Shown here: piece by piece, positions 4,636-60,320 of the stretch
How the letters are laid out: every line of letters begins with the position of its first letter
How positions within the stretch are numbered: position 1 is the first letter of the stretch
NCBI GenBank assembly: GCA_963555705.1
Contig: OY743170.1
Coordinates: 32,873,362-32,937,361, forward strand
Length of the DNA stretch: 64,000 nt
Direction: 5' to 3'
DNA from: Ligustrum vulgare
Taxonomy: Eukaryota > Streptophyta > Magnoliopsida > Lamiales > Oleaceae
Notes under the pieces: generated by a model
Told to the model about the DNA's origin: nothing
The model's input: the letters and a program-made list of their open reading frames with translations, nothing else
Database searches by the model: none
Position numbers and translations under genes: made by a program

Positions 4636-6115
4636 TTAAGTAAGAAGTTTTAACCCCATCCTACTCGAAGTGGTCCTCACTAATTCTTTAGTAAGTGGTT
4701 TTGTTAGTGGATCCACTAAATTATCATTTGATTTTACATAAGTGATTGAAATTGTTCCATCTTTGATCAATTTCCTTACATAGTCGTGTCTTAGACTTAT
4801 ATGTCTAGACTTTCTATTGAATACTTCAGTGTATGTTCTAGCTAAAGTGGTTTGACTATCACATAGTATTGGAATAGAATTTAAATCTTTATCTCCTATT
4901 GGAATCTCATACAAGAATTTAAATTCTTATCTCCTATTGGAATTTCATACAAGAGATCCCTTAGCCACTCAGCTTCTTTTCCGACCTTTGCCAATGCTAC
5001 AAATTCGGATTCCATTGTTGAGTGTGTTATACATGTTTGTTTCTCGGATCTCCATGAGATTGCTACTCCTCCAAGAGTAAACACCCAACCTAAGGTGGAT
5101 TTATTCTCACCTGTACTAGATATCCAACTTGCATTGGTAAATCCTTCTAGGATTGCCGGAAACCGGGAATATTGGAGACCTATATCTTTGGTTTTCTTTA
5201 AATAACCAAGAACACGTCCAATTGCCTTCCAATGTTCCTTACTTGGGTTACTAGTAAACCTACTAAGTTTACTAACCACAAATGCTATATCCGGTCTAGT
5301 GCATTGGACCGCATACATCAGAGATCCAATAGCACTTGCAAATTCAAGTTGTGCTATTGATATTCCATCATTTTTTACAAGTTTAATACTTGCATCAAAT
5401 GGGGTGTTTGCTTCTTTAATGTTCAAATGTTTAAACTTATCAATCACATTCTCAATTTAATGTGTTTGATTAAGCATAAAATCCTCTCTTGCGACCTTGA
5501 TACCTAATATGGTATTCACTTATCTTTCATTTTAAATGTGGAAGATAGAAACTTTTTTGTTTCATTTATGCCTTTAATATGATTACTTCTAATCAACATA
5601 TCATCCACATAAAGGAATATAATCACAACATGTTTTTCATGTTCCTTCGAATATAAGCACTTATCAACACTATTGTATTTGAATCCAAATGACATAATTT
5701 CAAAATCGAATTTCTCATGCCATTTTTTCGGTACCTGTTTTAAACCATATAACGATTTAACTATTTTGCATATTTTCTTTTCATTTCCGAGGAAAAAAAA
5801 ATCTTCAGGTTGTTCCATATAAACCTCCTCATCGAGGTCCCCATTTAAGAAAGCTGTTTTAACATCCATTTGATGTATGTGCAAATTATGAATGGAAGCT
5901 AAGGAAAACATTATTCTTATAGATTTAATGCATGCCACGGGTGCATATGTATCAAAATAATCTATTCCTTCCTTTTGTTGATAACCTTTGGCTACTAGTC
6001 GGGCTTTAAAGGTATTAAGAGTACCATCTGCGTTGAACTTCTTTCTAAATACCCATTTACATCCTATATGTTTAGAGCCATTTTGTAGATCAACAAGTTC
6101 TCAAGTATTGTTAGA
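4636..6115 (-). pseudogene. Copia reverse transcriptase and RNase H, broken
   Basis: Minus-strand pieces read QMDVKTAFLNGDL and then YVDDM (the RT catalytic box), followed by [15 protein letters not shown] and the RNase H region with [10 protein letters not shown] and the terminal KSNDNLVDPLTKPL block. All are diagnostic of Ty1/Copia. The RNase H entry motif, normally G[YF]TDADW, reads GFTNASW here, so the acidic residues are lost. A short tandem duplication at about 4896-4945 repeats a YEIPIGDK segment and breaks the frame. There is a further break near 5450-5515. It cannot encode a functional polymerase. Confidence 0.92.
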
Positions 6116-6139
6116 CATTATTGAATTCATTTCATCTTT

Positions 6140-7542
6140 TCAAAAATTACTATCTGTTGATGACATAGCCTCTTTATAAGTTTTAGGATCCGTTTCGGTT
6201 TGAAGAACATATGGTAATATTCTTATGAAACTCTTTGTATCTCCTTCAATAAGATAAAGAGAAAAAAGTTGAGAGTCAGTTTCGTTCGGTCCTAATACTT
6301 TTTCTTTTCGAGTTCTTTTGATTCTATGAAGTTCATTAGGATCGTCAACATCTTTAGAGGATGTTTCTCCAAATGTTTTTGTAGAATTTTGAATCACTTT
6401 ATTTGATTCCACAACATTATTATCCGAAGATAAAGAATCCTCAAAGAACTCTACTTCGCGTGACTCAATTATCACATTGGCCTCCAAATTCAATAATCGA
6501 TATGCTTTACTATTTGAAGCATATCCAACAAATACACATTTGATCCCTGTTGGACCAAGTTTTGTTCGTTTTGGATCGGTGTTTTTGCAATAAGCAAGAC
6601 ACCCCCACACTTTGAAGTAACCAATATTTGGTTTTCTTCCTTTCCATAATTCATATGGAGATACTCTTGTAAATTTAGAAGGAACTCTATTTAATATATG
6701 ACATGCACTAAGTAATGCTTCACCCCAAATAAATGGAAATTTAGAATATAACAACATTGCATTAATCATTTCAACAAGTGTCCTATTTTTTCTTTCCGCC
6801 AAACCATTTTGTTCGGGTGTTCTAGGTGCACTACGTTGATGAATTATGTCATGTTGTTCATAAAATAAGTTAAAATCACTAGAGAATTTTTATTTTCTTA
6901 TTTAAGTGATTTTCAACTTCATTTTTATATGCTTTGAAAGTTTCAAGCCTCATCCTTATGTTTTAATAAATAAACATAAGTAAATCTAGAACAATCATCA
7001 ATAAATGTTATGAAATATCTATTTCCTCCTCTTGTTAACATACCATTTAATTCACATATGTCGGTATGCACAAGATCTAATAAATGAGTTGTTCTAGTTA
7101 CACTATGAAAATGTTTCTTAATCATCTTAGATTCTACACAAGTTTTGCATTTATAAACTTTGTTTTCATCATAAGATATTAAGTCACTCATTTTCATTGT
7201 TTTCATAGTATTATTGCCTATATGTCCTAATCGACCATGTCACAAAGTAAAAGAGTCAAACATATAAGTGGAATTTACTTTATTCATATTATTATTGTCA
7301 ACGATATATAATTTGACCATTCCATCACTAGAATAGCCATTTCCAACAAAGATCCCATTACGTGATAATACAAGTTTACCAGATTCATAAATACTTTTGA
7401 TTCCGGGTTTTCCCAAAAAATCACAACTAACTAAGTTTCTATTCATGTCCGTAATATGGAATACATTAGTAAAAGCAACGATTTTTCTAGATGTGAAGAT
7501 GATATCTATACTTCCTTTTCCAACCACTTTGGAGCGGCCTTC
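6140..7542 (-). pseudogene. Copia protease tail, pre-integrase and integrase, broken
   Basis: From high to low coordinate: a segment with VVGKGSIDIIF and NRNLVSCDFLGKPG (end of protease/GAG-pre-integrase), then CKTCVESKM and LVHTDICELNG with FITFIDDCSRF (integrase core), then AERKNRTLVEM and FIWGEALLSACHILNRVP (integrase end). This is the normal Copia order. Frames are interrupted near 7207-7240 and 6803-6942. The upstream end at 7542 is the insertion point of the nested LTR element. Confidence 0.9.
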
Positions 7543-20375: not shown

Positions 20376-20981
<606 letters not shown>

Positions 20982-38045: not shown

Positions 38046-41000
38046 TGAAAAAATAGGCTGTATCTTTAGATATTCCATTGACGGTGGGAGGAGATTTCAA
38101 TGCTATATCTCACACAGGAGAAAGAAGGGGAGGAAATGATTTACTCACAACTTCTATGAATGATTTCAACACAATGATGTAAACTAGCTGAAATGAGAAC
38201 TGAAGGGAGTTTCTTCACTTGGCACAAGAATCAGACATGGCAAAAACTAGATAGAGTTTTAATCAACGATGAATTTGCAATTTATCTTCCAAACGTTTTT
38301 GTTCAAGTTCTTAATAGTAACACATCAGATCACAGCCCAATTGTCATTATTCAGTCACTTGAACAAGCACAAATGAAACCTTCTTTCTAGTTTTTGAACA
38401 TGTGGTGTGAGCACGAGAACTTTAAAGAGATGATTCTTAAAAACTGCTAGACACCTTTAAATCCTTATTCCAGATGCTTGTATGGATTTATCTTCAAACT
38501 TAAAAGGCTAAAAACTTGTTTTAAGGACTGGAACAAACAAGTGTTTGGAAATATCTTCCAAAAACTTAAGCAAGTAGAGGAGAATGCAGACATACAAGGA
38601 ATTTTTTTTTTTTTTTTTGCTGAAAATCCTTCTCCGGAAAATAGATGTACAACATCTTTGGCATATGCACAAGTCAATAAACTCCTGGCTGTGGAAGAAT
38701 TGTATTGGAGACAAAAAAAATCTTGCATTAAATGGCATTCAGAATATGATAGAAACACTAGATTCTTCCATGCTAAAGTTCAGTCCAATAGATCCAGAAG
38801 CAAAATTGTTGGGATTACAAGAGGGATGGAAATTGGACTGAGGATATATAGGAGATTAGGGAAGATGTTGTTTCATTCTTCCAAGCACATTTTACTGCTG
38901 AGCCTACTACAAATGGAACTGATTTGCTGGAATGTATTCCAAAATTGGTAACTGAAGAAGACAACAAAAATTGACACAGACACAGTGAAGAGGAAATTAA
39001 ACAAGCATTATTTGATATTTATGTCAATAGCTGCGCTGGACCTGATGGATTTAATGGATACTTATCAAGAATGATGGAATATAATCAAGAAAGATCTTCA
39101 AGAAGCCATTGAGGAATTCTTTCAAGGTAGAGCCTTGCCAAATGGAGCTACAGTAACATCTATTATTTTGATCAGTAAGACTGAATCTCCTAGAAGTTGG
39201 AAAGAATATAGACCAATAAGTCTATGCAATGTGTTCAACATGATTATAACCAAGATTTTGAATAATAGACTTGCTACCATCTTACCTAAAATCATTTTCG
39301 AGAATCAAAGTGGTTTTGTTCAAGGAAGATGCATCTTATATAACGTCCTTTTGGCATAGGAAATGACCCAACAGTTGAACAGGAAAGTGAGAGGAGGAAA
39401 TATTATCCTGAAACTCGACATGGCTAAAGCATATGATAGAGTGTCTTGGTCTTTCCTTCTACAAGTCCTTTATCAGTTTGGGTTCAGTCATAATTGGATT
39501 GATTTGATTTCAAAGTGCATTCAAAATTGCAGGTTTTCTATTCTGATTAATGATAGAATTGGTTGGTTTCTTCCCATCTACTAGGGGACTAAGATAAGGG
39601 GACCCAATCTCCCCTAGTCTATTTATTCTCATGGCTAATAGTTTATTACGGGGGTTGAATCATTTATTTCAAAAATATAGTTCCTTAAGGTATGTTTATG
39701 GCGGAAGAACTATCATTTCTCATTTAAGCTTTGCAGATGATATTATTTTGTTCACCAATGGTCAAGTCTCATCCATTAAGAAAGTCATTGAGTTCTTGAA
39801 CTCAAATGAAGAAACATCATGTCAGCTTGTAAATACTAGCAAAAGCTCCTTCATCCTGGATAGAAGACATCAAACTCCAACAATTAAGCACTTGATAGGA
39901 TACCAAGAGGAAAAACTGCGAATTAAATATTTGGGATTTCTTTTGTTTGTAGGAAATAAAAAGCTATTCCAATACGTGACATTGATACAGAAGTTCAAGT
40001 CAATTTTAGGCAGTTGGGAGAACAAACTCTTATCTACCGGAGGAAGAATCATACTCATCAGACATGTTCTTCTATCTATGCCTATATTTTTACTGCAAAT
40101 TATGGACCCACCTAAAGGTATTTTTCATAAACTTAATGCAATGATGAATGGCTTCCTTTGGGGGTGATAAAGAATCCGGGAAAAAAGTCCATCGAGCAAG
40201 TTGGGAAAAGCCTTGCTATCCTACCAGTGAAGGTGGACTAGGATTTACAAGCCTGGAAGTGATGAGCAAATCTTTCGATTATAAACTATGGTGGAAGTTT
40301 AGATCCCAGAAGACTCTATGGAGAAGAATTTTGATGGAGAAATACAATCCTGAGGATCAGATTATATGCAATCTAATTAACAAAACTGGTTCTCCCATTT
40401 GGAAGAGATTAACAATAATCAGTAGAGAGGTTGAAGCGTAAATTGCTTGGTGGATTGGAAAGGCTGATATTAGCATTTGGCATGAAAGATGGATCAAATT
40501 GGTATACTTAGTTTGATCAATGAACCGGGTGCATTACAACAGGGTCAGGTGAAAGATTTCATTCTTAACGACTCTTGGAATGTCCATAAACTTCAAATGA
40601 TTTTACCTGAGTGGATCATTAAACAGATTCACGATATCCCTATTTCGTCTTCAGAGGATAAGATGTTTTGGATTGCAGATAAAACCAACAAATTTTCTAC
40701 TTCATCCTGTAGGGAGTTGATTAGAAGAAAGACTAATCTTCAACAGTCCATGAAGGTCATATGGAGTAAAGAAATGCCTATCAAAATTTCCTTTTTCATT
40801 TGGAAATTGTGGAAAGACTGGATCCCGGTGGAAGATATTTTGAAAAGAAAATTTGGATTCCAATTTACCTCGAAATGCCAATGTTGTTCATCAATTGTAA
40901 TAGTTGAACATGTGTTTCTCTCAGGCCCAGTTGCCATCCAGGTTTGGTCTCATTTTTTTTTTTCCAGAATTTGCAAGAAATTCCACATATTCATATCCTA

Positions 41001-48516: not shown

Positions 48517-49339
48517 TAATCAAATTCATCGAATAAAATGTCTTAAAATAATTTATAAAACTTTCAATTAAAACGTACATATTATTTTTATTTCAAAAAT
48601 AATTTTTCAAAATAATAATAAATCAAATGTATGTTTTAAAATTTTAACTAGACCCTCAGATAGAGGGGGCCGAGTCGAGCTGCTCGGCCCATGGCTTCCT
48701 GTGCTCGGCACATCAAATAGACGAGCCGAGTCACGAGCTCGTTGAGAAGGAGCCTAGCCTAGGCTAGGCTCGTTTTGCAATGCTGAGCTCGGCTCGTTCG
48801 GCTTGTTATCTTTTTTATTTGTTTCCCCTCCCCCTCTTTTACGTTAATTAAGTTGGTATTCTGAATTCGGTAGTTAAAATACTTGAAGTCTTGAATATTA
48901 ATATATAAATTTGTAATTATTTATAACTTAATACGTAAAAAAGTAATGTTAATTGTAAGATTAGATAATAGATATTATAGATTGTTATTTGTTTGTTACT
49001 TGTTAATGTAACTTACTTGTTAGAATTAGAAGTGAATTAAAAAGATGTTCAAAATTTAATTAATCAATTATCCAATTATAATATGAAAAGACAAAAATTA
49101 AAATTGAGTAAATAAATTAAAATTTAAAAGTTTAAAAAATAAAACCCTCCTCCTTTTTTCGGGCTTGGGACCGGCTACTAAATTGAATAATTGAATTTTT
49201 AGCAGGCGAAGTTAAAATTGTACACGAACAATATGTTACGTGTATAATTTTTGTTTTGAAATCGAAATTGTATTTTATTTTATATAAAGAAATTAAAGTT
49301 TAAAGTTAAATATCATTTACCCTACTGCATGCAATTTCG

Positions 49340-49815
49340 GCATACTTATGTTTTATGTGTAAATTACTGTCTTTCCAATCTTTGACACACATTAATTCTT
49401 CCAAAATATCTTCTTTGAGTCGGTTCCTGACTTCTGACAAAACCCTTTTACCTGCATTAAAAGCAGACTCCGAAGCTACCGTGCTAACTGGAGTTGTTAG
49501 TAGATCTTTTGCTATGGCGGAAACAATCGGATATTATCGTTCGTTTATTCGCCAATAATGAAGTACATCAAATTATAAAGAATTAACAGCCTCCACATTT
49601 CTAACTAGATCTTGTCCAAAATAAATTTTCAATTCTCCAGGTATTCGAAGTGAACCTAATTTGTTACAACTAGTCAACGTACTGTAAGAAGAAGTGCCTT
49701 GTATTTGACTCATTTCTTCGATTAAATTGTATAATTCTACTTCATCGTCTTCAAGTTTAGTGTCACGTGATGGTGCAGATTGCGTATGAGTAACATTAGT
49801 TCCTAATCATGCTAC
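49340..49815 (-). pseudogene. hAT transposase, C-terminal dimerisation part
   Basis: The minus strand reads GELKIYFGQDLVRNVEAVNSL, YWRINE, YPIVSAIAKDLLTTPVSTVA and SESAFNAGKRVLSEVRNRL. This is the hAT C-terminal dimerisation domain (tPVSTVASESAFS...R). A stop follows VNSL and another follows RINER. It belongs to the same gene as 58690-60320, cut by the LTR element. Confidence 0.9.
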
Positions 49816-49821
49816 ATATAC

Positions 49822-51870
49822 TGTAGCGACCAAGAATTTTTACGCGATTAATAATTATTTTAATAGAAAATCGTGTCGCTACTATTTCACCCATTTTTAT
49901 TAAGTTAACGCCACGACGTATTCGTATAGCCAAGTCAAGAAATAATCGAGATCGTTCGATTTTAAATTAAATTCCGAATTTCTAAAAATATCTCCATTCT
50001 CTTGATTTAAAGTATATTAAGTCTAAGTACTTAATTCAATGTTATCCCAATATTTATTTGTACAAAAATTACTTTTATTATTTAAATTAAGAAAATATAT
50101 GCAAGCATGAGAGGTTCCATTATATGTAATCATGAAGAGCATAATATTTGTATAAATATGAAAAAATATATGAATGATTTATATACTCCATTATATATAA
50201 TCATGAAGAGCATAATATTTGTATAAATATGGAAAAGTATATGAATGATTGATAAGACTCCATTATATGTAATCATGAAGAGCATAATATTTGTATAAAT
50301 ATGAAAAAGTATATGAATGATTTATATACTCCATTATATATAATCATGAAGAGCATAATATTTGTATAAATATGGAAAAGTATATGAATGATTTATATAC
50401 TCCATTATATATAATCATGAAGAGCATAATATTTGTATAAATATGGAAAAGTATATGAATGATTGATAAGACTCCATTATATATAATCATGAAGAGCATA
50501 ATATTTGTATAAATATGGAAAAGTATATGAATGATTGATAAGACTCCATTATATATAATCATGAAGAGCATATTATTTGTATAAATATGGAAAAGTATAT
50601 GAATGGTGCTTTACTTTAAGAAAAGGATGTGTTAAAATTAATAGAATTGAATGATTATGTTTACAATATGCCAACTTTATACATCTATTTAAACCCATCT
50701 CTTTTACACACAACTCTACACATATACACTTATTTCCAATCTCTTGACAAAATCCACAAGTAAGAGAAATTCAAGGTGGTCAAGAAAGTTTTGGTCCATT
50801 TACTACTACACTTCATTTTAATCTTTTAAAAGGTAAGTATATCTTATGTTTTTATGAAAAGTAAGTATGTTTTTATGAAAGGTAAATACACCTTATGTTT
50901 TTATGAAAAGTAAGTATGTTTTTATGACAAGTAAGTATATCTTATGTTTTTATGAAAAGTAAGTATGTTTTTATGAAAGGTAAATACACCTTATGTTTTT
51001 ATGAAAAGTAAGTATGTTTTTATGACAAGTAAGTATATCTTATGTTTTTATGAAAAGTAAGTATGTTTTTATGAAAGGTAAATACACCTTATGTTTTTAT
51101 GAAAAGTAAGTATGTTTTTATGACAAGTAAGTATATCTTATGTTTTTATGAAAATGTTTGAATCATTGCTATGAAATCAATCTCACAAGATTGTTATGGG
51201 TTCCATATGATATGTTTATGATTATGCTAAGGGGACCGGAGTTTAGTAGCGCTACACATAAGAATTCTTGCCATTTAAGTTCGGTAAAATTCTTGTGTCT
51301 CCCTATGTTTATGAGTATTTCGATCCTATCCTATGTTATGATGAAAATGATCCATATGCTTTCAAAAGAAAATTTATGCTTGGTATACTTACTGGGATTT
51401 TATAAATCTCACTCCACGATATTTACCATTTTCAGATAATTGAAGGTTCGAGGCGGTCAACATGGAAGTGGCAAAAGTGGTTAAGATTGATGAGATAATT
51501 ATGTTGAACTTTATGTAAGAAAATTATGTTCTATTTTTATTCACAAATAAAATTATGGGATTCTAATTATTCTTTTGAATAATTTTACATTACTATTTAA
51601 GTCTCGATAATATGATATGAGTCACTTTTAGTGGCACTCGAATGGAAGAGTTCGAGGCGGTCAACATGGAAGTGGCAAAAGTGGTTAAGATTGATGAGAT
51701 AATTATGTTGAACTTTATGTAAGAAAATTATGTTCTATTTTTATTCACAAATAAAATTATGGGATTCTAATTATTCTTTTGAATAATTTTACATTACTAT
51801 TTAAGTCTCGATAATATGATATGAGTCACTTTTAGTGGCACTCGAATGGAAGAGAATTCGGGTCGTCACA
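49822..51870 (+). repeat. 5' LTR of the LARD-like element
   Basis: TGTAGCGACC...GGTCGTCACA. It contains three tandem arrays: seven units of 71-72 bp (about 50118-50606), about three units of 97 bp (50831-51150), and two units of 204 bp (51446-51649, 51650-51853). Confidence 0.95.
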
Positions 51871-51872
51871 GT

Positions 51873-51884
51873 TGGTATCAGAGC
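51873..51884 (+). promoter_or_regulatory. tRNA-Met primer binding site
   Basis: TGGTATCAGAGC two bases after the 5' LTR matches the complement of the initiator tRNA-Met 3' end used by many plant retrotransposons. Confidence 0.85.
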
Positions 51885-54148
51885 AAAGAGTTTTAAAAAC
51901 GATTCTGTAGATTTTTGAAATTTTATTTCTTTAAAAAAAAAATAATCACTATTCACGTGAACAGTAAAACGACGTGCTATTCATGATGAACAGTGAACGA
52001 AATCACTATTCATTATAAAAAAAAAAGTTGAATTTTCACATGTCAAGTATGGTTATGATTTTGAAAAGCATGATGAAATTTGATGTGCGAATTTCAAGGA
52101 CAAAATTCATTTTAAGCAAGGGAGTTTGTAATGTCCTGAAAATTTTATGGAATATAATTAGTTAGTGATATGATGTTTATATTGATGTCTTTGATAAATT
52201 TCTAGAAGTTCGGGGACTAAAGGAAAAATAAGATTTGACGATAAATTTTATTTGGGTTAAGTTATTAATTATTGATGGGGAGATAATTACTATATCGATA
52301 TTGGATTTGTTTTGAAGACTGTGATTAATTAGGAATTATGATTCAAGAAAATGTTGATTTGGATACAACCACATTAAATTATTGTTGATTAAAGGAAAAT
52401 AAGATTATATGAAATATTTTAACTCATCACTCTACTATGTCACTCTCCACGTATTGACTCCTCGAACCAGGTATGTTATATGCTTTGCAAGTCATTTACG
52501 ATTTTATTAAGACATGTTAAGTATGAAATCTTCATATGTTATGAATCTTTATGTGTTACACATAATATACATGTCAAGTATGATATAAATTGATAGAAGA
52601 CTCAATTTTTTTATTCTTTTCAATGTAGAATCATGAGACAGAGAGGATATTTATATGAATTTTGGTGCATATTAAGCTTAGTAAGATTGACTCAATTAGA
52701 AATTAAGTTGGGTTGTAACTTTTGCCCAAAATATATGGAATAATATATTAAACAAACAAAATTGATAATGAATTCGTACAATAATTTATCCCTTTATCAC
52801 TACCTTTGTGTAAAAACAAGGGAAAAACTGTGGATGGTTATTAGTACTTCCTCTTCAAGTTTCAATTTTCGGTTCAATAATTTATCCCTTTATCACTACC
52901 TTTGCTTAAAAGCAAGGAAAAACTGTGGATGATTATTGGTACCACTCTTCAAGTTTCAATTCTGAAAAAAAAAAAAAAAAAAAAAAAAAAATTCAGAAAG
53001 AAAAGAAAGAAAGAGAACGGGTGTTGAGCATAATGGGAATAATATGACTTAAGAATGATTTTCAAAATAATTGTTGTCCTCGAGTTTAGAAATGATAAAC
53101 CTTAAATGGACTTTGCATAATTGATTTTAGACATGGCATTAAGTATGAGAAGTCAACAGAAATGATTAGAAATATGTTCAGATTATCTATCATTTAGATT
53201 TAATGAGAAATAGCGAGCCAATTTTATGAATTTTTATGAGATGTTAAGATTATAAGTGATATGATTTTAATGAGACTTTTATGAGAAGCATTATGAAGTT
53301 AGAGATTTAAAGATTTGGTTATTGGGAATTAAGTAATGGATATTATGTTGAGTAAGTGAATTATGCCTCTATATTGAAGAGAAATTTATTATGAACTTTG
53401 GCCTTGTGATTAAATTTTGGGAATATGATTTATGACTTATAAATATAAGTATGAGTAATCTTTTGAGCCAATTAAGGTATTGAAGGAAGTGATATTGTGA
53501 TATTGACGACTATGATTTGAAATTTCTATGTTGAGGAATTATGAATTGATTTTTTGGAATATTTTTTTTATGATATTGAAGTTTGATGAAATTGTGGTCA
53601 ATTTTTAGATCGTTGTGATCAAATGTGGAATTATTTATTATTGTGAGTTATGAAGTATGCTTACGGTTTGAATAAGTCCAAATTTCAAAGGAAACTCCGC
53701 TTAGAATTTTATCGTTTGGAATTAAGAGCATAGTATGGTATGCAATCACTAAGAGAATTGAGGTTAGACATGCAAATTCATTTACATCACAAACGAGATT
53801 TAGTAGATGATAACAGAGATATTTATTATTTTCTCGTAAGGAGAACACACAAGAGTCACATTGGAAAGAAATACATGAAACACGCAAAATCAAAAGAAAG
53901 CAACATGGGAAATTCCTCAAATTGAGAGATGTGTTTCCGGAGTAGCCGTATCCTACCACCTCTGACCTTTTGAGGAAATAAAGAAACCTTCAAAGAGGTG
54001 TGTTTCGAGAGTAAGAATACTCCGTAATCTACCACCTGGAACCTTTGAGGTACACACAAGATTTAAACATTAAGGAAAATCCTAGGAAATTAGAAGGGTG
54101 TCTCGAGAGTAAGAATACTCCGTACTCTACCCCCACCTATTCTAAGAT
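51885..54148. other. Non-coding interior of the LARD-like element
   Basis: No gag or pol. Near 52100-52150 a run reading AAGGACAAAATTC...GGGAGTTTGTAATGTCCTG looks like the polypurine tract and LTR start of another Gypsy element. At 52781-52970 a unit of about 95 bp is duplicated (TTTATCCCTTTATCACTACC in both). A poly(A) run lies at 52965-52990. Confidence 0.6.
53932..54135. repeat. Three imperfect repeats beside the LOG 3' end
   Basis: Copies start near 53932, 53999 and 54099 with GTGTTTC[CG][GA]GAGTA and CCGTA.TCTACCACCT words; the second also has GAACCTTTGAGG. They lie directly downstream of the LOG stop codon on the minus strand. Confidence 0.7.
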
Positions 54149-54802
54149 TCATAAAGTTAAGTTTACATTAACCGGACTCCATTTTCGCTTGATTCCCCTT
54201 CCTTGCGACCAATCTATCTTAACCCCTGCTGGATCTTGTATTGAGATATATGACTGCAGCTTATCCAGTAGTTCATCAATAGTAGGAGCAGAAATAAGAA
54301 GCCTTCTGGAAAATGGAGAGATGAATCCCTGTTCCACAGCATAATCAAGAAAGGTTAACAAACCATCAAAGAAATTGTTAACATTCAGAAGCCCAATAGG
54401 CTTAGTATGGAGATCTAGTTGAGCCCACGAGGTAATGTTAAAGATTTCTTCTAAGGTACCAAAACCTCCGGGCAGGGCTATAAAGGCATCAGAACCATAT
54501 AGCATACAAGTTATGCGTTCATGGATGGATAAGGTTTGAACTTCATGCCCTCGTGTTTTGCCTGCAACATCTACCAAAGGGACATGTATGACACCGATTA
54601 CTTTTGATTTCTCTGCAAGAGCAGATTGGGAAACACAACCCATTAGACCACTGCTACCACCCCCATACACAAGAGTGATACCTTTTTCCCCCAGTTTCTT
54701 TCCAAGATCTACGGTCGCTTCTAGATAACTGAAGCCTTTCCCCACTTTTGATCCACAAAATACACAAATAGTTTTGATCTGTCGAAGTTTTGGTGCTTCC
54801 AT
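54149..54802 (-). CDS. LOG-family cytokinin riboside 5'-monophosphate phosphoribohydrolase, intronless
   Basis: An uninterrupted 217-residue ORF, the usual LOG length. Early residues IKTICVFCGS form the nucleotide-binding start. GGGSSGLMG (47-55) and PGGFGTLEE (111-119) are the diagnostic LOG boxes, the latter with the catalytic Glu. The C-terminal LISAPTIDELLDKL is also conserved. LOG enzymes remove ribose 5'-phosphate from cytokinin nucleotides to release active free bases in the cytosol. Plant LOG genes normally have several introns; this copy has none and lies antisense inside an LTR retrotransposon, so it looks like a retro-captured copy. All key motifs are intact. Whether it is expressed or active cannot be seen here. 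Confidence 0.9.
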   Translation of the reverse strand: MEAPKLRQIKTICVFCGSKVGKGFSYLEATVDLGKKLGEKGITLVYGGGSSGLMGCVSQSALAEKSKVIGVIHVPLVDVAGKTRGHEVQTLSIHERITCMLYGSDAFIALPGGFGTLEEIFNITSWAQLDLHTKPIGLLNVNNFFDGLLTFLDYAVEQGFISPFSRRLLISAPTIDELLDKLQSYISIQDPAGVKIDWSQGRGIKRKWSPVNVNLTL

Positions 54803-55098
54803 CTTTGATAGTATAGAAGAGAAAACTTACGAAGAAGATGTGATTTTGGGATGCCTGAACTATGAAATATGTTTGGCTATTTAAAGCCGAAAAAATTTAC
54901 TGTTTTTGATTGATTATGAAAAAGTAAAGATTTACTTTTGACAAAATCGGCCAACTTTTGACTGTTTTACCAAAGATATCACCTTTCGGTGATTTATTTC
55001 CAGCTTTATCAAAACTCGAGAAAGGAAAATATATTTTATTTCCAAAACGCGTGAAAGAAAACAGCAAAATATTTTAAATGTGTATCAAGAGATTTACC

Positions 55099-55698
55099 TT
55101 ATATCATTGTTGAACTGCCAGAAGCCTCATTTTGTAAAATAGACTGGCAAACAGGATCTTTTGCTATTATATTTTGGAGACTATAACGATTTTTGTCCTC
55201 GTTAAACTGAGCGTATAAGGAGAGAAGTTCACGTTGCACATAACCACTTGGGTGCGTCTCAAGAGTCAGTCGAATATCATCCAAAGACTCCTTACTCAGT
55301 CCACCCTTTATGAATTTGATTTTATCATCCCGATTAGTAGAAGAATATCTTACTGTTTTGCAACGAGTATCACAGTTCCAACGAGCACATTTGTAGCAAC
55401 CATTCAGCCTTTTTGCTCTTCGTTTCTTTGCGAAGGTGCTTTTGCCTAAACCAGGCATGTGCTTTGGAAATGTCATAGGTAATTCACCAGATAGTCGAAC
55501 CTTTGCTTCGATCAACCAGCGAACATCTTCTGAAACACCATGAGCCATCAGCAACCTCAATCTTTCGAGTCTTATTCGATAAATTTTCCTCAGATCATTC
55601 ATTGGAAGACTGGAATAATACTTGCGAATGTTTGTAAGAATGATATCCATGTTTTTGATGGATCTAACCTCTTCCCAGCATGAACTATTTAAAAGCAT
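55099..55698 (-). CDS. Unrecognised 199-residue basic Cys-cluster protein
   Basis: An intact ORF upstream of, and in the same direction as, the LOG copy, with 296 bp between them. The N-terminal half is rich in Arg/Leu helices (RKIYRIRLERLRLL, residues 37-50). A basic KKRRAKR stretch (91-97), possibly a nuclear signal, is followed by a Cys cluster C-x2-C-x4-C-x3-C (residues 101, 104, 109, 113) that could bind zinc. There is no signal peptide or membrane segment. I do not recognise the family; it is not a gag knuckle (no CCHC) or any pol domain. It may be a captured host gene or a gene peculiar to this retroelement. The start could also be the Met at residue 17. Confidence 0.65.
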   Translation of the reverse strand: MLLNSSCWEEVRSIKNMDIILTNIRKYYSSLPMNDLRKIYRIRLERLRLLMAHGVSEDVRWLIEAKVRLSGELPMTFPKHMPGLGKSTFAKKRRAKRLNGCYKCARWNCDTRCKTVRYSSTNRDDKIKFIKGGLSKESLDDIRLTLETHPSGYVQRELLSLYAQFNEDKNRYSLQNIIAKDPVCQSILQNEASGSSTMI

Positions 55699-56568
55699 TA
55701 AGGATCGGAGGGAATCCGCGTGATATTGATTCCAGCAAGAAAGCGCGGAATAGAATAATGGAAAAGAGGGAACAAGAGTTTATGCGCCGTTTACTTTCTT
55801 GATAAAAGGAAGATTTGATGATGACGGGATTTGAGATATGGAATATTTTCTTGGATTTTGGGTACTGATATTTTGATATAATAATCAAGGTATAGAAATA
55901 ATACGGGGATACGTGAAAGTGAAATAAGGACTGTATTGAATCAGGATTAATAAGTTTGTGCAAGTGAAAGGAATACCTTACGGGAAATGTTATGATATTT
56001 GAGTTAAGAATTTTAATTATTTGGGAGATATTTGTTTATTGAATTTTGCAGAAATTTTGGGTTACAAATATTGGAAAGATAAACTGATGATTATGTTGAT
56101 ATGTGAATAACATGTTTGGGTATATTACATAAAGAATATTCAGGTAATCGTTTTAATTATTTTGGGATATTTGGTGATAAGAAGAAATGACAAATTATTA
56201 TGGTATGATATGTTAGTAAAGATTTATTGAAATTTTAGAGATATTAATACGAATATTTGAGGTCACATGATACGATGATAAATGACAAGTTACATGAATA
56301 CTACAAGATATGATGAAATATCACATACGATTGGGAATTTTCATTTTGATTCAGAAGAATTTATGAGTAGACATATGTCTATTATTGATAGAAAAGTCCA
56401 TGTCTTAAGAAAACAAATTGATGCATTTAGTCAAAGTCCAGTGGGTTAAATATGGTTGGGTTAAATATGGTAGCGATGATGCTACATAAGAAGAAGAAGA
56501 AGAGATTCTGATTAAGTGTTCAGAAATCATAAGATCAAGTAAGATTAATTTCGAGGACGAAATTATTT
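55699..56568. other. Non-coding interior of the LARD-like element, 3' part
   Basis: AT-rich sequence with no recognisable domain. The 92-codon frame at 55685-55963 is hydrophobic low-complexity sequence and is not supported as a gene. It would hold any promoter of the two minus-strand ORFs. Confidence 0.5.
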
Positions 56569-56582
56569 TAAGGGGGGAAGTT
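56569..56582 (+). promoter_or_regulatory. Polypurine tract
   Basis: An AAGGGGGGAAG run directly before the 3' LTR, preceded by a CGAGGACGAAATT word typical of the 3' end of plant Gypsy internal regions. Confidence 0.8.
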
Positions 56583-58631
56583 TGTAGCGACCAAGAATTT
56601 TTACGCGATTAATAATTATTTTAATAGAAAATCGTGTCGTTACTATTTCACCCATTTTTATTAAGTTAACGCCACGACGTATTCGTATAGCCAAGTCAAG
56701 AAATAATCGAGATCGTTCGATTTTAAATTAAATTCCGAATTTCTAAAAATATCTCCATTCTCTTGATTTAAAGTATATTAAGTCTAAGTACTTAATTCAA
56801 TGTTATCCCAATATTTATTTGTACAAAAATTACTTTTATTATTTAAATTAAGAAAATATATGCAAGCATGAGAGGTTCCATTATATGTAATCATGAAGAG
56901 CATAATATTTGTATAAATATGGAAAAGTATATGAATGATTTATATACTCCATTATATATAATCATGAAGAGCATAATATTTGTATAAATATGGAAAAGTA
57001 TATGAATGATTGATAAGACTCCATTATATGTAATCATGAAGAGCATAATATTTGTATAAATATGAAAAAGTATATGAATGATTTATATACTCCATTATAT
57101 ATAATCATGAAGAGCATAATATTTGTATAAATATGGAAAAGTATATGAATGATTTATATACTCCATTATATATAATCATGAAGAGCATAATATTTGTATA
57201 AATATGGAAAAGTATATGAATGATTGATAAGACTCCATTATATATAATCATGAAGAGCATAATATTTGTATAAATATGGAAAAGTATATGAATGATTGAT
57301 AAGACTCCATTATATATAATCATGAAGAGCATATTATTTGTATAAATATGGAAAAGTATATGAATGGTGCTTTACTTTAAGAAAAGGATGTGTTAAAATT
57401 AATAGAATTGAATGATTATGTTTACAATATGCCAACTTTATACATCTATTTAAACCCATCTCTTTTACACACAACTCTACACATATACACTTATTTCCAA
57501 TCTCTTGACAAAATCCACAAGTAAGAGAAATTCAAGGTGGTCAAGAAAGTTTTGGTCCATTTACTACTACACTTCATTTTAATCTTTTAAAAGGTAAGTA
57601 TATCTTATGTTTTTATGAAAAGTAAGTATGTTTTTATGAAAGGTAAATACACCTTATGTTTTTATGAAAAGTAAGTATGTTTTTATGACAAGTAAGTATA
57701 TCTTATGTTTTTATGAAAAGTAAGTATGTTTTTATGAAAGGTAAATACACCTTATGTTTTTATGAAAAGTAAGTATGTTTTTATGACAAGTAAGTATATC
57801 TTATGTTTTTATGAAAAGTAAGTATGTTTTTATGAAAGGTAAATACACCTTATGTTTTTATGAAAAGTAAGTATGTTTTTATGACAAGTAAGTATATCTT
57901 ATGTTTTTATGAAAATGTTTGGATCATTGCTATGAAATCAATCTCACAAGATTGTTATGGGTTCCATATGATATGTTTATGATTATGCTAAGGGGACCGG
58001 AGTTTAGTAGCGCTACACATAAGAATTCTTGCCATTTAAGTTCGGTAAAATTCTTGTGTCTCCCTATGTTTATGAGTATTTCGATCCTATCCTATGTTAT
58101 GATGAAAATGATCCATATGCTTTCAAAAGAAAATTTATGCTTGGTATACTTACTGGGATTTTATAAATCTCACTCCACGATATTTACCATTTTCAGATAA
58201 TTGAAGGTTCGAGGCGGTCAACATGGAAGTGGCAAAAGTGGTTAAGATTGATGAGATAATTATGTTGAACTTTATGTAAGAAAATTATGTTCTATTTTTA
58301 TTCACAAATAAAATTATGGGATTCTAATTATTCTTTTGAATAATTTTACATTACTATTTAAGTCTCGATAATATGATATGAGTCACTTTTAGTGGCACTC
58401 GAATGGAAGAGTTCGAGGCGGTCAACATGGAAGTGGCAAAAGTGGTTAAGATTGATGAGATAATTATGTTGAACTTTATGTAAGAAAATTATGTTCTATT
58501 TTTATTCACAAATAAAATTATGGGATTCTAATTATTCTTTTGAATAATTTTACATTACTATTTAAGTCTCGATAATATGATATGAGTCACTTTTAGTGGC
58601 ACTCGAATGGAAGAGAATTCGGGTCGTCACA
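56583..58631 (+). repeat. 3' LTR of the LARD-like element
   Basis: It is the partner of 49822-51870, same length; differences seen by eye are one near 56640, two near 56923-56930 and one near 57914. It is followed by TATAC. Confidence 0.95.
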
Positions 58632-58689
58632 TATACAATGTACATGTTTACTGACGTGCTTTCTAATTATTATAAGTGATAGGTTTATC

Positions 58690-60320
58690 CAGAATCAAAG
58701 AGCTATTGATTTTTTAAACAAGAAGTTTCCTACCCTTTAAATTGAAATGTGGGTCCATTATGCATACTAAGGGAAATAACATAGGTAAATCTTCCCAATA
58801 TTTTCTAAATTTAATTTCCATAACAATTATCATATCAACAAAAAATGAGTCATGTCTATATCTATAAAAAGTTCTTGCAATAATATAAAGATGTTCAAGA
58901 ACTCTTAAACTAATTGGGTAATATACCCCAGATAATATGTTGGTTGAATCATAAAAACTTGTCAAATTTTTTTTCACTTTAAAAGCAGCTTCTCAATCTA
59001 ATTCTATTAATAGAGGGTCATTGTCATTCTTAAGTGGTCTATTGTTATAATACTCCATTATTATGTGTTCATATCCTTCACATGATTTAAGTAACAAGTA
59101 TGTAAAGTTCCATCTATGATTATGGCCTACGTCCGTGATAAATTTCTTAAGATCTAAACTGTATTGGGAACACATCTCGTCAAAATATTGTATTCTACTC
59201 GGTGATATAGTTATGTGCACTAATGCATCCCTAATTTTTTCCATTTGATCTTTAAAATGTCTAAGTCCATCTTGAACAATTAAATTTAAATTATGACATA
59301 CACATCTAACATGGAATAAAAAATCACCAAAATCTGGTTTAATAATTTTACATAACTTATCTACTACAGGCTTATTTACACTAGTATTATCGAAAGTAAA
59401 TGATCGAATTTTACTTTCGAACCCATATTCTCTAACAATCTGCAGTATAGCATTAAATATGTTGGTTGCGTTATGAGGAAATTCTAGAATTTTAAAAGCG
59501 ATAATTTTTTTATGCATAACCCCAAGTGGATCAATGTAGTGTGCAACAGCAATATATCCTTTTTTGTTAATACCTTCCTAAAGATCGGAAGTAAAAGAAA
59601 TAACACCACCATATTTATTTAAATCGACTATTAATTGCTTCTTAGTTTTTAGAAAATATTCTATTGTATCAGACGCAGAGTGTTTCGACTAATACTGGCG
59701 TACCTGGGTTGAAAAGAACGCTTGATGTATGTAACAAAGTGTTCGTTGTCCACTATGCTTAGCGGCAACTCCGCCCTCACAATGAATTGAACTATCCCAG
59801 TTCGATTCTCTTCTTCGAAATACATCTAATTTGAAAGTGTTCTAGATCTCGTTGCAGAACCACTAGCGGCCGATGAGCCAAATTGTAGTTGACTTTGATT
59901 CGATTCAACGAACCCGTGCTTGGTCTGACACCTGCGTTAGTGACGGTTGAGGTGTGAAGTACCAATGCCTTTTGCCCATGCCAATTGTTGTGCAAAATAT
60001 TTATACACAGCTTTGAACTCTTGTGTTCCTTCAATTATTTTTCCCGTTTGCGACCAATTTAAAGTGATCCCAACAAGTTGAAGTTGACTTCTTAATGTTT
60101 CTAACTTTTTGTTTCCCTCTTGCGTCGGGAATAGCGGGATCATTTTGTAAGATTTCAACATCCGCATCATCTTCAACATCCTCTAAGTAAATTGTTTGAT
60201 ATAATGCATCTTCTTCAATATTGTCCGGAATTGGTATGTTGTTGAGACCGGCAAATTCATTGTCAAACTGAGAGTCATGCCCTCCAAATCTAGGTGGTGG
60301 ACCATCGAGCAATTCATTAA
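58690..60320 (-). pseudogene. hAT transposase, N-terminal and central parts, broken
   Basis: A minus-strand acidic N-terminus (from 60312) leads to a BED zinc-finger region (STCWDHFKLV ... KGIGTSHLNRH) where the Cys pair expected in CKYC reads YKYF, so zinc binding is lost. The central RNase H-like part (58993-59517) includes IRSFTFDNTSVNKPVV (Asp region), HVRCVCHNLNLIVQDGL and KIRDALVHITISPSRIQ, diagnostic of hAT RICESLEEPER/Tam3-like transposases. Next comes IMDPHFNLKGRK. Frames are broken near 58980, 59580 and 59790. The C-terminus lies at 49340-49815. Confidence 0.9.

What the first reader, a model, noticed from the sequence alone, without database searches (positions are those of the whole stretch)
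49822..58631. Young LTR retrotransposon with no gag/pol carrying an intact LOG cytokinin-activation gene
Seen directly: two 2,049-bp LTRs with about four mismatches, a perfect TATAC target duplication, primer site and polypurine tract, and in between a full-length intronless LOG-type ORF in antisense. Known: LOG enzymes release active cytokinins, and plant LOG genes are normally multi-intron. Inference: a host LOG mRNA was captured by a LARD-type element that was mobilised recently, so an LTR element may be spreading a hormone-activation enzyme.
Basis: partly seen in the sequence, partly recalled or inferred. Interest (0 to 1): 0.88.

Follow-up and report, generated by a model that had tools for sequence, protein, structure and literature searches.

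The report
Retrotransposon carrying hormone and virus-like genes
A mobile DNA element, part of whose sequence recurs exactly more than three thousand times in one plant genome, carries no replication genes of its own but an intact gene for an enzyme predicted to switch on the growth hormone cytokinin and a second intact gene resembling plant-virus proteins that block RNA silencing; genes of both kinds occur in other plants, so jumping DNA may be pushing its host's growth and defence switches.

Summary
Confirmed: 49822-58631 is a young non-autonomous LTR retrotransposon (LTRs 4 differences in 2,049; TATAC duplication) with an intact, intronless, antisense LOG ORF and no gag/pol ORF. An exact 44-mer of the LOG active-site stretch occurs 3,451 times in the 1.385-Gb genome (reversed control 0); 4 of 5 further LTR pairs have their own, different duplications. 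Capture looks old: relatives of both proteins occur in rosids and asterids, four Orobanche gene models hold both domains, and the element LOG groups with LOGs of its type, apart from host LOG1/3 (unrooted). In diverged copies the zinc-finger ORF shows excess synonymous change (ratio 0.43, P=1e-4); loci picked by DNA do not (1.06). Of 120 listed relatives of the element LOG, 94 end in LxLxL, like TOPLESS-binding EAR motifs (host LOG1/3: 0 of 120); this copy's tail is degenerate. Best reading: an ancient antisense two-gene accessory module that likely weakens silencing and activates cytokinin. LOG in Citrus/Populus Gypsy elements was already reported; my searches found no report of the virus-like partner.

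The parts
49817..49821 (.). target-site duplication, left copy TATAC
49822..51870 (+). 5' LTR, 2,049 bp, with internal direct repeats spaced about 71, 49 and 204 bp
   Evidence: 45 LTR matches, some partial, listed
51871..51890 (+). primer-binding site, begins GTTGGTATCAGAGC, tRNA-iMet type (type recalled)
54149..54802 (-). LOG-type ORF, 217 aa, intronless, PF03641; Arg96 and FIALPGGxGTLEE motif as in host LOGs; C-terminal basic patch plus degenerate VNVNLTL tail; His at near-invariant Pro73
54877..54885 (-). TATA-like TTTAAATAG, 83 nt before the LOG ATG; candidate antisense promoter
   Evidence: the 14-mer around it is present in 58 of 64 loci, the other 6 not resolved; promoter activity inferred
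55099..55650 (-). NABP ORF from M17, 183 aa: N-terminal part predicted helical, AKKRRAKR basic motif, C-x2-C-x4-C-x3-C finger, DKIKFIKGGLSKES and LETHPSG motifs; PF05515 and PF01623
56570..56580 (+). polypurine tract; differs in one base from 32 of the 36 loci in which the junction was read
56583..58631 (+). 3' LTR, 4 differences from the 5' LTR
58632..58636 (.). target-site duplication, right copy TATAC

Best explanation
The locus is one copy of a high-copy LTR retrotransposon family without gag/pol whose interior carries an antisense pair of intact genes, a LOG-type enzyme gene and a zinc-finger gene matching the plant-virus NABP family, which likely act as accessory genes that promote the element's spread by weakening RNA silencing and activating cytokinin. 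Shown: element anatomy, the exact recurrence of the LOG stretch, intact ORFs in nearly all copies scored or fetched, profile membership of both proteins, relatives of both in other eudicots, and excess synonymous change in the NABP ORF of diverged copies. Inferred: (1) the element is copied in trans by a partner, probably Ty3/Gypsy, that was not identified; (2) the pair is transcribed antisense from internal promoters, perhaps from the TATA-like box before LOG; (3) NABP binds RNA and suppresses silencing or reprograms transcription, as related viral proteins do; (4) LOG releases active cytokinin, and in relatives with the LxLxL tail also recruits or titrates TOPLESS corepressors; (5) both favour dividing, weakly silenced cells, where a new insertion can reach the germ line. 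The LOG part came from a plant-type LOG long ago, the NABP most likely from a flexivirus-like RNA virus; the order of the two gains is unknown.
For: Anatomy. The two antisense ORFs have GC 0.41 and 0.39 against 0.26-0.30 in the rest of the element. Copy number: 3,451 exact 44-mers, control 0; 290 distinct loci in the merged lists. Integrity: LOG 149 of 150 scored places without stop (9,445 candidates), NABP 150 of 150 (9,400 candidates); both lists hold the best-scoring places only. Of 64 fetched loci, LOG has 1 frameshift and no stop in the other 63; NABP matched in 63, 4 with a frameshift, no stop in the other 59. Different duplications in 4 of 5 further pairs. NABP identity: this ORF exceeds both Pfam cut-offs; 32 of 34 aligned proteins, this one included, hit PF05515 and 28 of 34 PF01623 at E 0.001; basic motif, finger, then a DK-x-x-F-x-K motif, the order published for GVA p10 (PMC9104223). 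Of the eight best viral fold hits six are named nucleic-acid-binding or silencing-suppressor proteins of plant viruses, one is a cherry mottle leaf virus 15-kDa protein, one unnamed; none significant. Linkage: four Orobanche models with both domains; contig-length coincidences 8 against 1.1 expected. Constraint: NABP observed/expected N/S 0.48 in the 30 loci picked by LOG score, 0.43 in 7 diverged ones picked out of these afterwards (each P 1e-4), 0.53 in all 64 (P 5e-4); alignable flanks of the 7 are 75-99% identical with many indels. Tree. Tail: 94/120 against 0/120. Viral CRP functions: passages of PMC12172455, PMC8742542, PMC9104223.
Against: No expression, enzyme or silencing data. No gag/pol partner was found. 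In the 30 loci picked by DNA similarity NABP N/S is 1.06 (15 variants), and the 10 NABP differences counted in the 4 LTR-picked copies are all nonsynonymous; LOG there shows 9 nonsynonymous and 3 synonymous in the 3 gap-free copies, as drift after a burst would give. LOG ratios of 0.10-0.15 come from loci chosen by LOG protein score; the DNA-picked set gives 0.44 on 12 variants. Three of the 7 diverged copies share a frameshift near the NABP C-terminus. In the three Orobanche double models that I read, the LOG part is shortened and the invariant Arg is absent, and two of the three have PGGYDT for PGGxGT. The viral fold hits are not significant (best E 0.18) and the NABP model is weak (pLDDT 66). 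Co-divergence of NABP and LOG over 9 putative pairs is not significant (r 0.25, p 0.17). IMG/VR gave no relative. This copy has His at near-invariant Pro73 of LOG and a degenerate tail.
Confidence: 0.5

Rival explanations
1. Neutral passengers: the pair does nothing and looks intact only because the family amplified very recently from few source copies.
For: The 40 scored copies are 100% identical as printed; N/S about 1 in the DNA-picked set, and only nonsynonymous NABP differences in the LTR-picked copies.
Against: Full-length relatives at 47-67% (NABP) and 49-92% (LOG) identity, with named sources in several eudicot families; excess synonymous change, and no frame-breaking indel after M17 in 4 of 7 diverged copies and one near the C-terminus in 3, while their flanks hold many indels.
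Confidence: 0.2
2. One reading: a recent capture of a host LOG mRNA by a LARD, with LOG the only cargo of interest.
For: Intronless ORF; a host-type LOG in the genome is split into at least five exons.
Against: 45-47% identity to six host LOG1/3 proteins, separate group in the tree, relatives in other eudicots, virus-like partner gene; LOG in Gypsy elements of Citrus and Populus already in print.
Confidence: 0.05
3. The antisense transcript rather than the proteins is what matters: it makes double-stranded RNA with the sense transcript and tunes the element's own copy number.
For: The review PMC7264820 allows this role for antisense ORFs; the pair is antisense to the LTRs.
Against: Protein-level conservation and excess synonymous change.
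Confidence: 0.15
4. The zinc-finger protein is not of viral origin: it derives from a retroelement nucleocapsid knuckle or converged on a basic-plus-finger layout.
For: The Pfam match covers only about 60 residues; fold matches are not significant.
Against: This ORF exceeds the cut-offs of two viral families; 32 and 28 of 34 aligned proteins hit them at E 0.001 and no other Pfam family was listed; shared third motif after the finger as in GVA p10.
Confidence: 0.2

Closest known systems
LOG (YgdH) domain in Gypsy elements of Citrus and Populus (Steinbauerova 2011, not held, not read; Alvarado-Marchena 2022, PMC9289625, abstract, passages and section 12 read)
   Same: LOG domain carried inside LTR retrotransposons of eudicots
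   Different: Those consensuses were found through reverse transcriptase; here a family without gag/pol whose LOG stretch recurs 3,451 times, with a virus-type partner ORF; neither that partner nor a LOG tail is mentioned in what I read of the paper
Antisense additional ORFs of Grande, RIRE2, Retand, PvRetro13 (review PMC7264820, parts 1-2 of 3 read; study PMC11963269, passages read)
   Same: ORFs antisense to the element, in many copies and several species; Grande gene23 has its own promoter and a nuclear product
   Different: The review reports no clear similarity to other proteins; the Retand study lists TRP28, SMC and a few other domains and only suggests an unknown virus as source; here both ORFs have recognisable relatives
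Carlavirus/vitivirus/mandarivirus NABP or cysteine-rich proteins (PF01623, PF05515)
   Same: Basic motif, zinc finger, then a DK-x-x-F-x-K-like motif; Pfam matches above cut-off
   Different: Conserved N- and C-terminal parts outside the Pfam match; no viral replicase, movement or coat gene seen in the element
Plant LOG1/3 cytokinin riboside 5'-monophosphate phosphoribohydrolases
   Same: PF03641, Arg96 and PGGxGTLEE motif
   Different: 45-47% identity, no introns, extra basic plus LxLxL-type tail in most listed relatives
Orchid Gypsy elements with AlkB m6A demethylase (PMC9289625, abstract)
   Same: LTR elements that keep an accessory enzyme; carlavirus replicases also hold a 2OG-Fe(II) oxygenase domain (PMC8742542, passage)
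   Different: Different enzyme, 25-kb elements found through reverse transcriptase; activity shown there, not here

Membership tests
LTR retrotransposon | paired LTRs, TG..CA ends, target duplication, PBS, PPT | tested here: met
LTR retrotransposon (autonomous) | gag and pol ORFs | tested here: not met
   no other stop-to-stop ORF of 130 aa or more inside the element; shorter frames listed were not searched against Pfam
LARD | large LTR element with non-coding interior (definition recalled) | tested here: not met
   two intact conserved ORFs
Ty3/Gypsy lineage | reverse transcriptase phylogeny | not testable with these tools
   no pol in the element; partner not found
LOG phosphoribohydrolase | PF03641 and PGGxGTxxE with catalytic Arg (catalytic role recalled) | tested here: met
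LOG phosphoribohydrolase | activity on cytokinin riboside monophosphates | not testable with these tools
   needs enzyme assay
Flexivirus NABP/CRP | basic motif plus zinc finger, PF05515/PF01623 above cut-off | tested here: met
   for this ORF; of 120 listed relatives 106 have the C-x2-C-x4-C-x3-C finger, 84 the basic motif, 108 the third motif, 67 all three
Flexivirus NABP/CRP | fold similarity to viral NABPs | tested here: inconclusive
   six of the top eight hits bear such names, best E 0.18
Flexivirus NABP/CRP | encoded 3' of coat protein in a viral genome | tested here: not met
   no other long ORF in the element
EAR-motif protein | LxLxL motif (here sought at the C-terminus) | tested here: not met
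   this copy reads VNVNLTL; 94 of 120 listed relatives have it, 0 of 120 host LOG1/3

The most novel reading that the evidence does not exclude
Plant LTR retrotransposons run a two-protein host-manipulation module: a silencing suppressor of RNA-virus ancestry and a nuclear, TOPLESS-binding cytokinin-activating enzyme, kept together by selection across eudicots for perhaps 100 million years, by which the element weakens silencing and drives cell division to get its copies into the germ line, much as pathogens use effectors.
Probability: 0.25. Interest if true: 0.93.

Novelty: new variant of a known kind. Interest (0 to 1): 0.8.

Why it matters
The function of antisense accessory ORFs in plant retrotransposons is an open question in the papers read, partly because such ORFs resembled little that is known. 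Here both ORFs have recognisable relatives with defined biochemistry, so function can be tested directly. It would also mean that a transposon family encodes many potential hormone-activating enzymes, and that proteins annotated in plant genomes as LOGL10-type LOGs may be transposon proteins.

Tried and rejected
Rejected: recent host-LOG capture. Rejected: NABP broken in a quarter of copies: 14 of 58 full-length loci have early stops when read from M1, but counted from M17 only L050 of those 14 keeps a frameshift; over 63 loci there are 4 frameshifts and no stop in the other 59. Papers: 10 searches. Those that held NABP or carlavirus terms (11, 19, 59, 60, 97) listed no report of a flexivirus-type NABP in an LTR retrotransposon, but searches show only 20 of 28, 20 of 29 and 20 of 61 papers; YgdH with retrotransposon gave PMC9289625 alone. 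No search combined LOG with the EAR motif, so I make no claim on that in print. Read: section 12, abstract and passages of PMC9289625; parts 1 and 2 of 3 of PMC7264820; passages of PMC11963269, PMC3136472, PMC8742542, PMC9104223, PMC12172455; listings otherwise. Steinbauerova 2011 was not held.
Full report
What is there. At a recalled plant rate of 1.3e-8 per site per year, 4/2049 is under 0.1 million years; the rate for this species is unknown. No ORF of gag/pol size lies inside. The two antisense ORFs have GC 0.41 and 0.39, the rest of the element 0.26-0.30.

The second ORF. The 600-bp ORF upstream of LOG matches Viral_NABP (PF05515, 5.9e-9) and Carla_C4 (PF01623, 9.7e-5), both above the curated cut-off. 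A search of 5.8 billion proteins gave 413 relatives at E up to 0.01 (476 candidates); in the 120 listed, the organisms named are Orobanche, Populus, Xanthoceras and Acer. Of 34 aligned proteins, this one included, 32 hit PF05515 and 28 PF01623. The commonest length is 182 aa (62 of 120), which puts the start at M17 (55650). The order basic motif, zinc finger, DK-x-x-F-x-K motif parallels the published GVA p10 (KRRRARR, C-X-C-X4-H-X4-C, HKLDRLRFVKEGRV; PMC9104223, passages); that paper adds that the third motif is not conserved in other vitiviruses. The AlphaFold model is weak (pLDDT 66). Of its eight best viral fold hits six are named nucleic-acid-binding or silencing-suppressor proteins of plant viruses, one is a cherry mottle leaf virus 15-kDa protein and one has no name, but the best E-value is 0.18.

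The family. The LTR has 45 listed matches (some partial), many 100% identical as printed and in pairs about 6.5 kb apart. The LOG-NABP stretch has 40 scored copies, all 100% as printed, of 1,507 candidates. LOG: 150 places scored of 9,445 candidates, 149 without stop; NABP: 150 of 9,400, none with a stop; these are the best-scoring places, so they say little about worn copies. The merged lists give 290 distinct loci and 15 neighbour pairs 5.7-7.1 kb apart, which fit tandem LTR-interior-LTR-interior arrays. An exact 44-mer over the LOG active-site stretch occurs 1,764 + 1,687 = 3,451 times, reversed control 0. If each hit is a whole element, that is roughly 23-29 Mb, about 2% of the genome (inference). 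Of five further LTR pairs, four have perfect and different 5-bp duplications; the pair at C13:35304896/35311437 has none.

Host LOG. A PGGYGT pattern, which the element (PGGFGT) lacks, had one hit in the genome and led to a host-type LOG at C10:8432300-8434700, matched in at least five pieces over about 1.55 kb. Element and host LOGs are 45-47% identical (six host proteins). In a tree of 40 LOGs, the 25 non-host rows, including Diospyros, Populus, Parasponia, Reevesia, Diplodiscus, Xanthoceras and Primulina, lie on one side of a 100/100 branch from 15 host LOGs. No outgroup was used, so this is a split, not a rooted clade, and that those 25 lie in LTR elements was not shown. Reevesia is a rosid, Orobanche and Diospyros are asterids. 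Arg96 and the FIALPGGxGTLEE motif are kept in the 27 aligned proteins, two of the motif's positions being nearly rather than fully invariant.

Linkage elsewhere. Four Orobanche gene models contain both the NABP and the LOG domain. In the three whose sequence I read (P0015, P0020, P0023) the LOG part is shortened and lacks the invariant Arg, and two have PGGYDT, so these look like worn or misjoined copies. Among 105 and 65 distinct contig length/source values typed from the two listings, 8 coincide, against 1.1 expected from 400 shifts; above 4 kb 2 against 0.0025. Divergences of NABP and LOG over nine putative pairs were not significantly correlated. I could not read DNA of these loci, so LTRs around them are not shown here; LOG in Gypsy consensuses of Citrus and Populus is in print (PMC9289625).

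Selection. I used 64 loci: 30 picked by DNA, 30 by LOG protein score, 4 by LTR. LOG is full-length in all 64 with one frameshift. NABP from M17 matched in 63; one locus gave no NABP match (L058 is absent from the list). Four have frameshifts (one internal, three at the same place near the C-terminus) and the other 59 have no stop. In seven diverged copies the NABP (read from M1) is 93-96% identical to the window, LOG 98.5-99.4%, the spacer 84-97%, LOG downstream 89-99%, and the alignable part of the NABP upstream region 75-87%, with many indels. NABP variants from M17: in these seven, 36 nonsynonymous and 32 synonymous against 46.7 and 17.8 expected, ratio 0.43, P 1e-4; in the 30 LOG-picked loci they were taken from, 0.48, P 1e-4; in all 64, 0.53, P 0.00045. 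The seven were chosen after the fact for their NABP divergence, and P treats variants as independent. Against this, the 30 DNA-picked loci give 1.06 (15 variants) and the four LTR-picked copies show 10 nonsynonymous and no synonymous NABP differences, as expected for drift after insertion. LOG's 0.10-0.15 is biased by selection on protein score; its DNA-picked value is 0.44 on 12 variants.

The LOG tail. Of the 120 listed relatives of the element LOG, 94 have LxLxL in the last 12 residues (91 of them after a basic run); 0 of 120 host LOG1/3 do; shuffled tails give 6.3. Many of the 120 are close relatives, so 94 is not 94 independent events. LxLxL is an EAR motif, and pathogen effectors with one bind TOPLESS (titles and abstract starts in the listing). 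This copy and its nearest relative read VNVNLTL, so the motif is degenerate here.

Mechanism. Related viral proteins are silencing suppressors, and one (chrysanthemum virus B p12) acts as a transcription factor inducing hyperplasia (PMC12172455, PMC8742542, passages). Solved relatives of the LOG ORF are named cytokinin riboside 5'-monophosphate phosphoribohydrolases. I therefore propose that the pair serves the element by weakening silencing and favouring dividing cells. A TATA-like box lies 83 nt before the LOG ATG; the 14-mer around it is present in 58 of 64 loci, the other six were not resolved because the short core also occurs elsewhere in these loci. All functional steps are inferred.

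Novelty. LOG inside Gypsy elements and antisense accessory ORFs are known. A flexivirus-type partner ORF did not appear in the papers that my searches listed (limits in Tried and rejected); the LOG tail was not searched for in print. The Retand study suggested an unknown virus as a source of antisense ORFs (PMC11963269); this is a concrete candidate case.

Noticed in passing
window 48600-49821 and 58632-60300, minus strand: The element seems to sit inside a degraded hAT-type transposase gene: the left flank reads ...TPVSTVASESAFNAGKRVLSEVRNRL (family recalled, the Pfam call failed), so no host-gene synteny was seen at this site.
   Followed up: partly
window 51446-51854 and 58207-58615: A unit of about 204 bp is duplicated in both LTRs of this copy; most LTR matches elsewhere align only up to position 1829 or less, as if they held one unit.
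   Followed up: partly
window 56570-56580; LOG residue 73: This copy differs from 32 of 36 loci in the polypurine tract and has His at a near-invariant Pro of LOG, so it is not typical of the family.
   Followed up: partly
G000:C1:45031728, C3:73856471, C17:4640281 and 12 more: 15 pairs of neighbouring copies 5.7-7.1 kb apart, suggesting tandem arrays that share LTRs.
   Followed up: partly
window 52090-52140: A second purine tract and TGTA start preceded by a sequence much like the one before the true 3' LTR (ATTTCAAGGACAAAATTCATTTTAAGCAAGGGAG), perhaps a relic of another element inside the left interior.
   Followed up: no
window 53925-54134: Three copies (60-100% alike) of a 43-bp repeat downstream of the LOG stop codon.
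   Followed up: no
P0125, P0181, P0222 (Diospyros and Populus LOGL10): Proteins named LOGL10 by annotators are among the 120 closest relatives of the element LOG, and the two placed in the tree (P0125, P0181) fall in its group; plant LOG gene surveys may be counting transposon proteins.
   Followed up: partly
window 4896-6889 minus; 39598-40167 plus; 20376-20786 minus: Open frames that look like Ty1/copia pol, a LINE reverse transcriptase and calmodulin (by eye, not searched).
   Followed up: no
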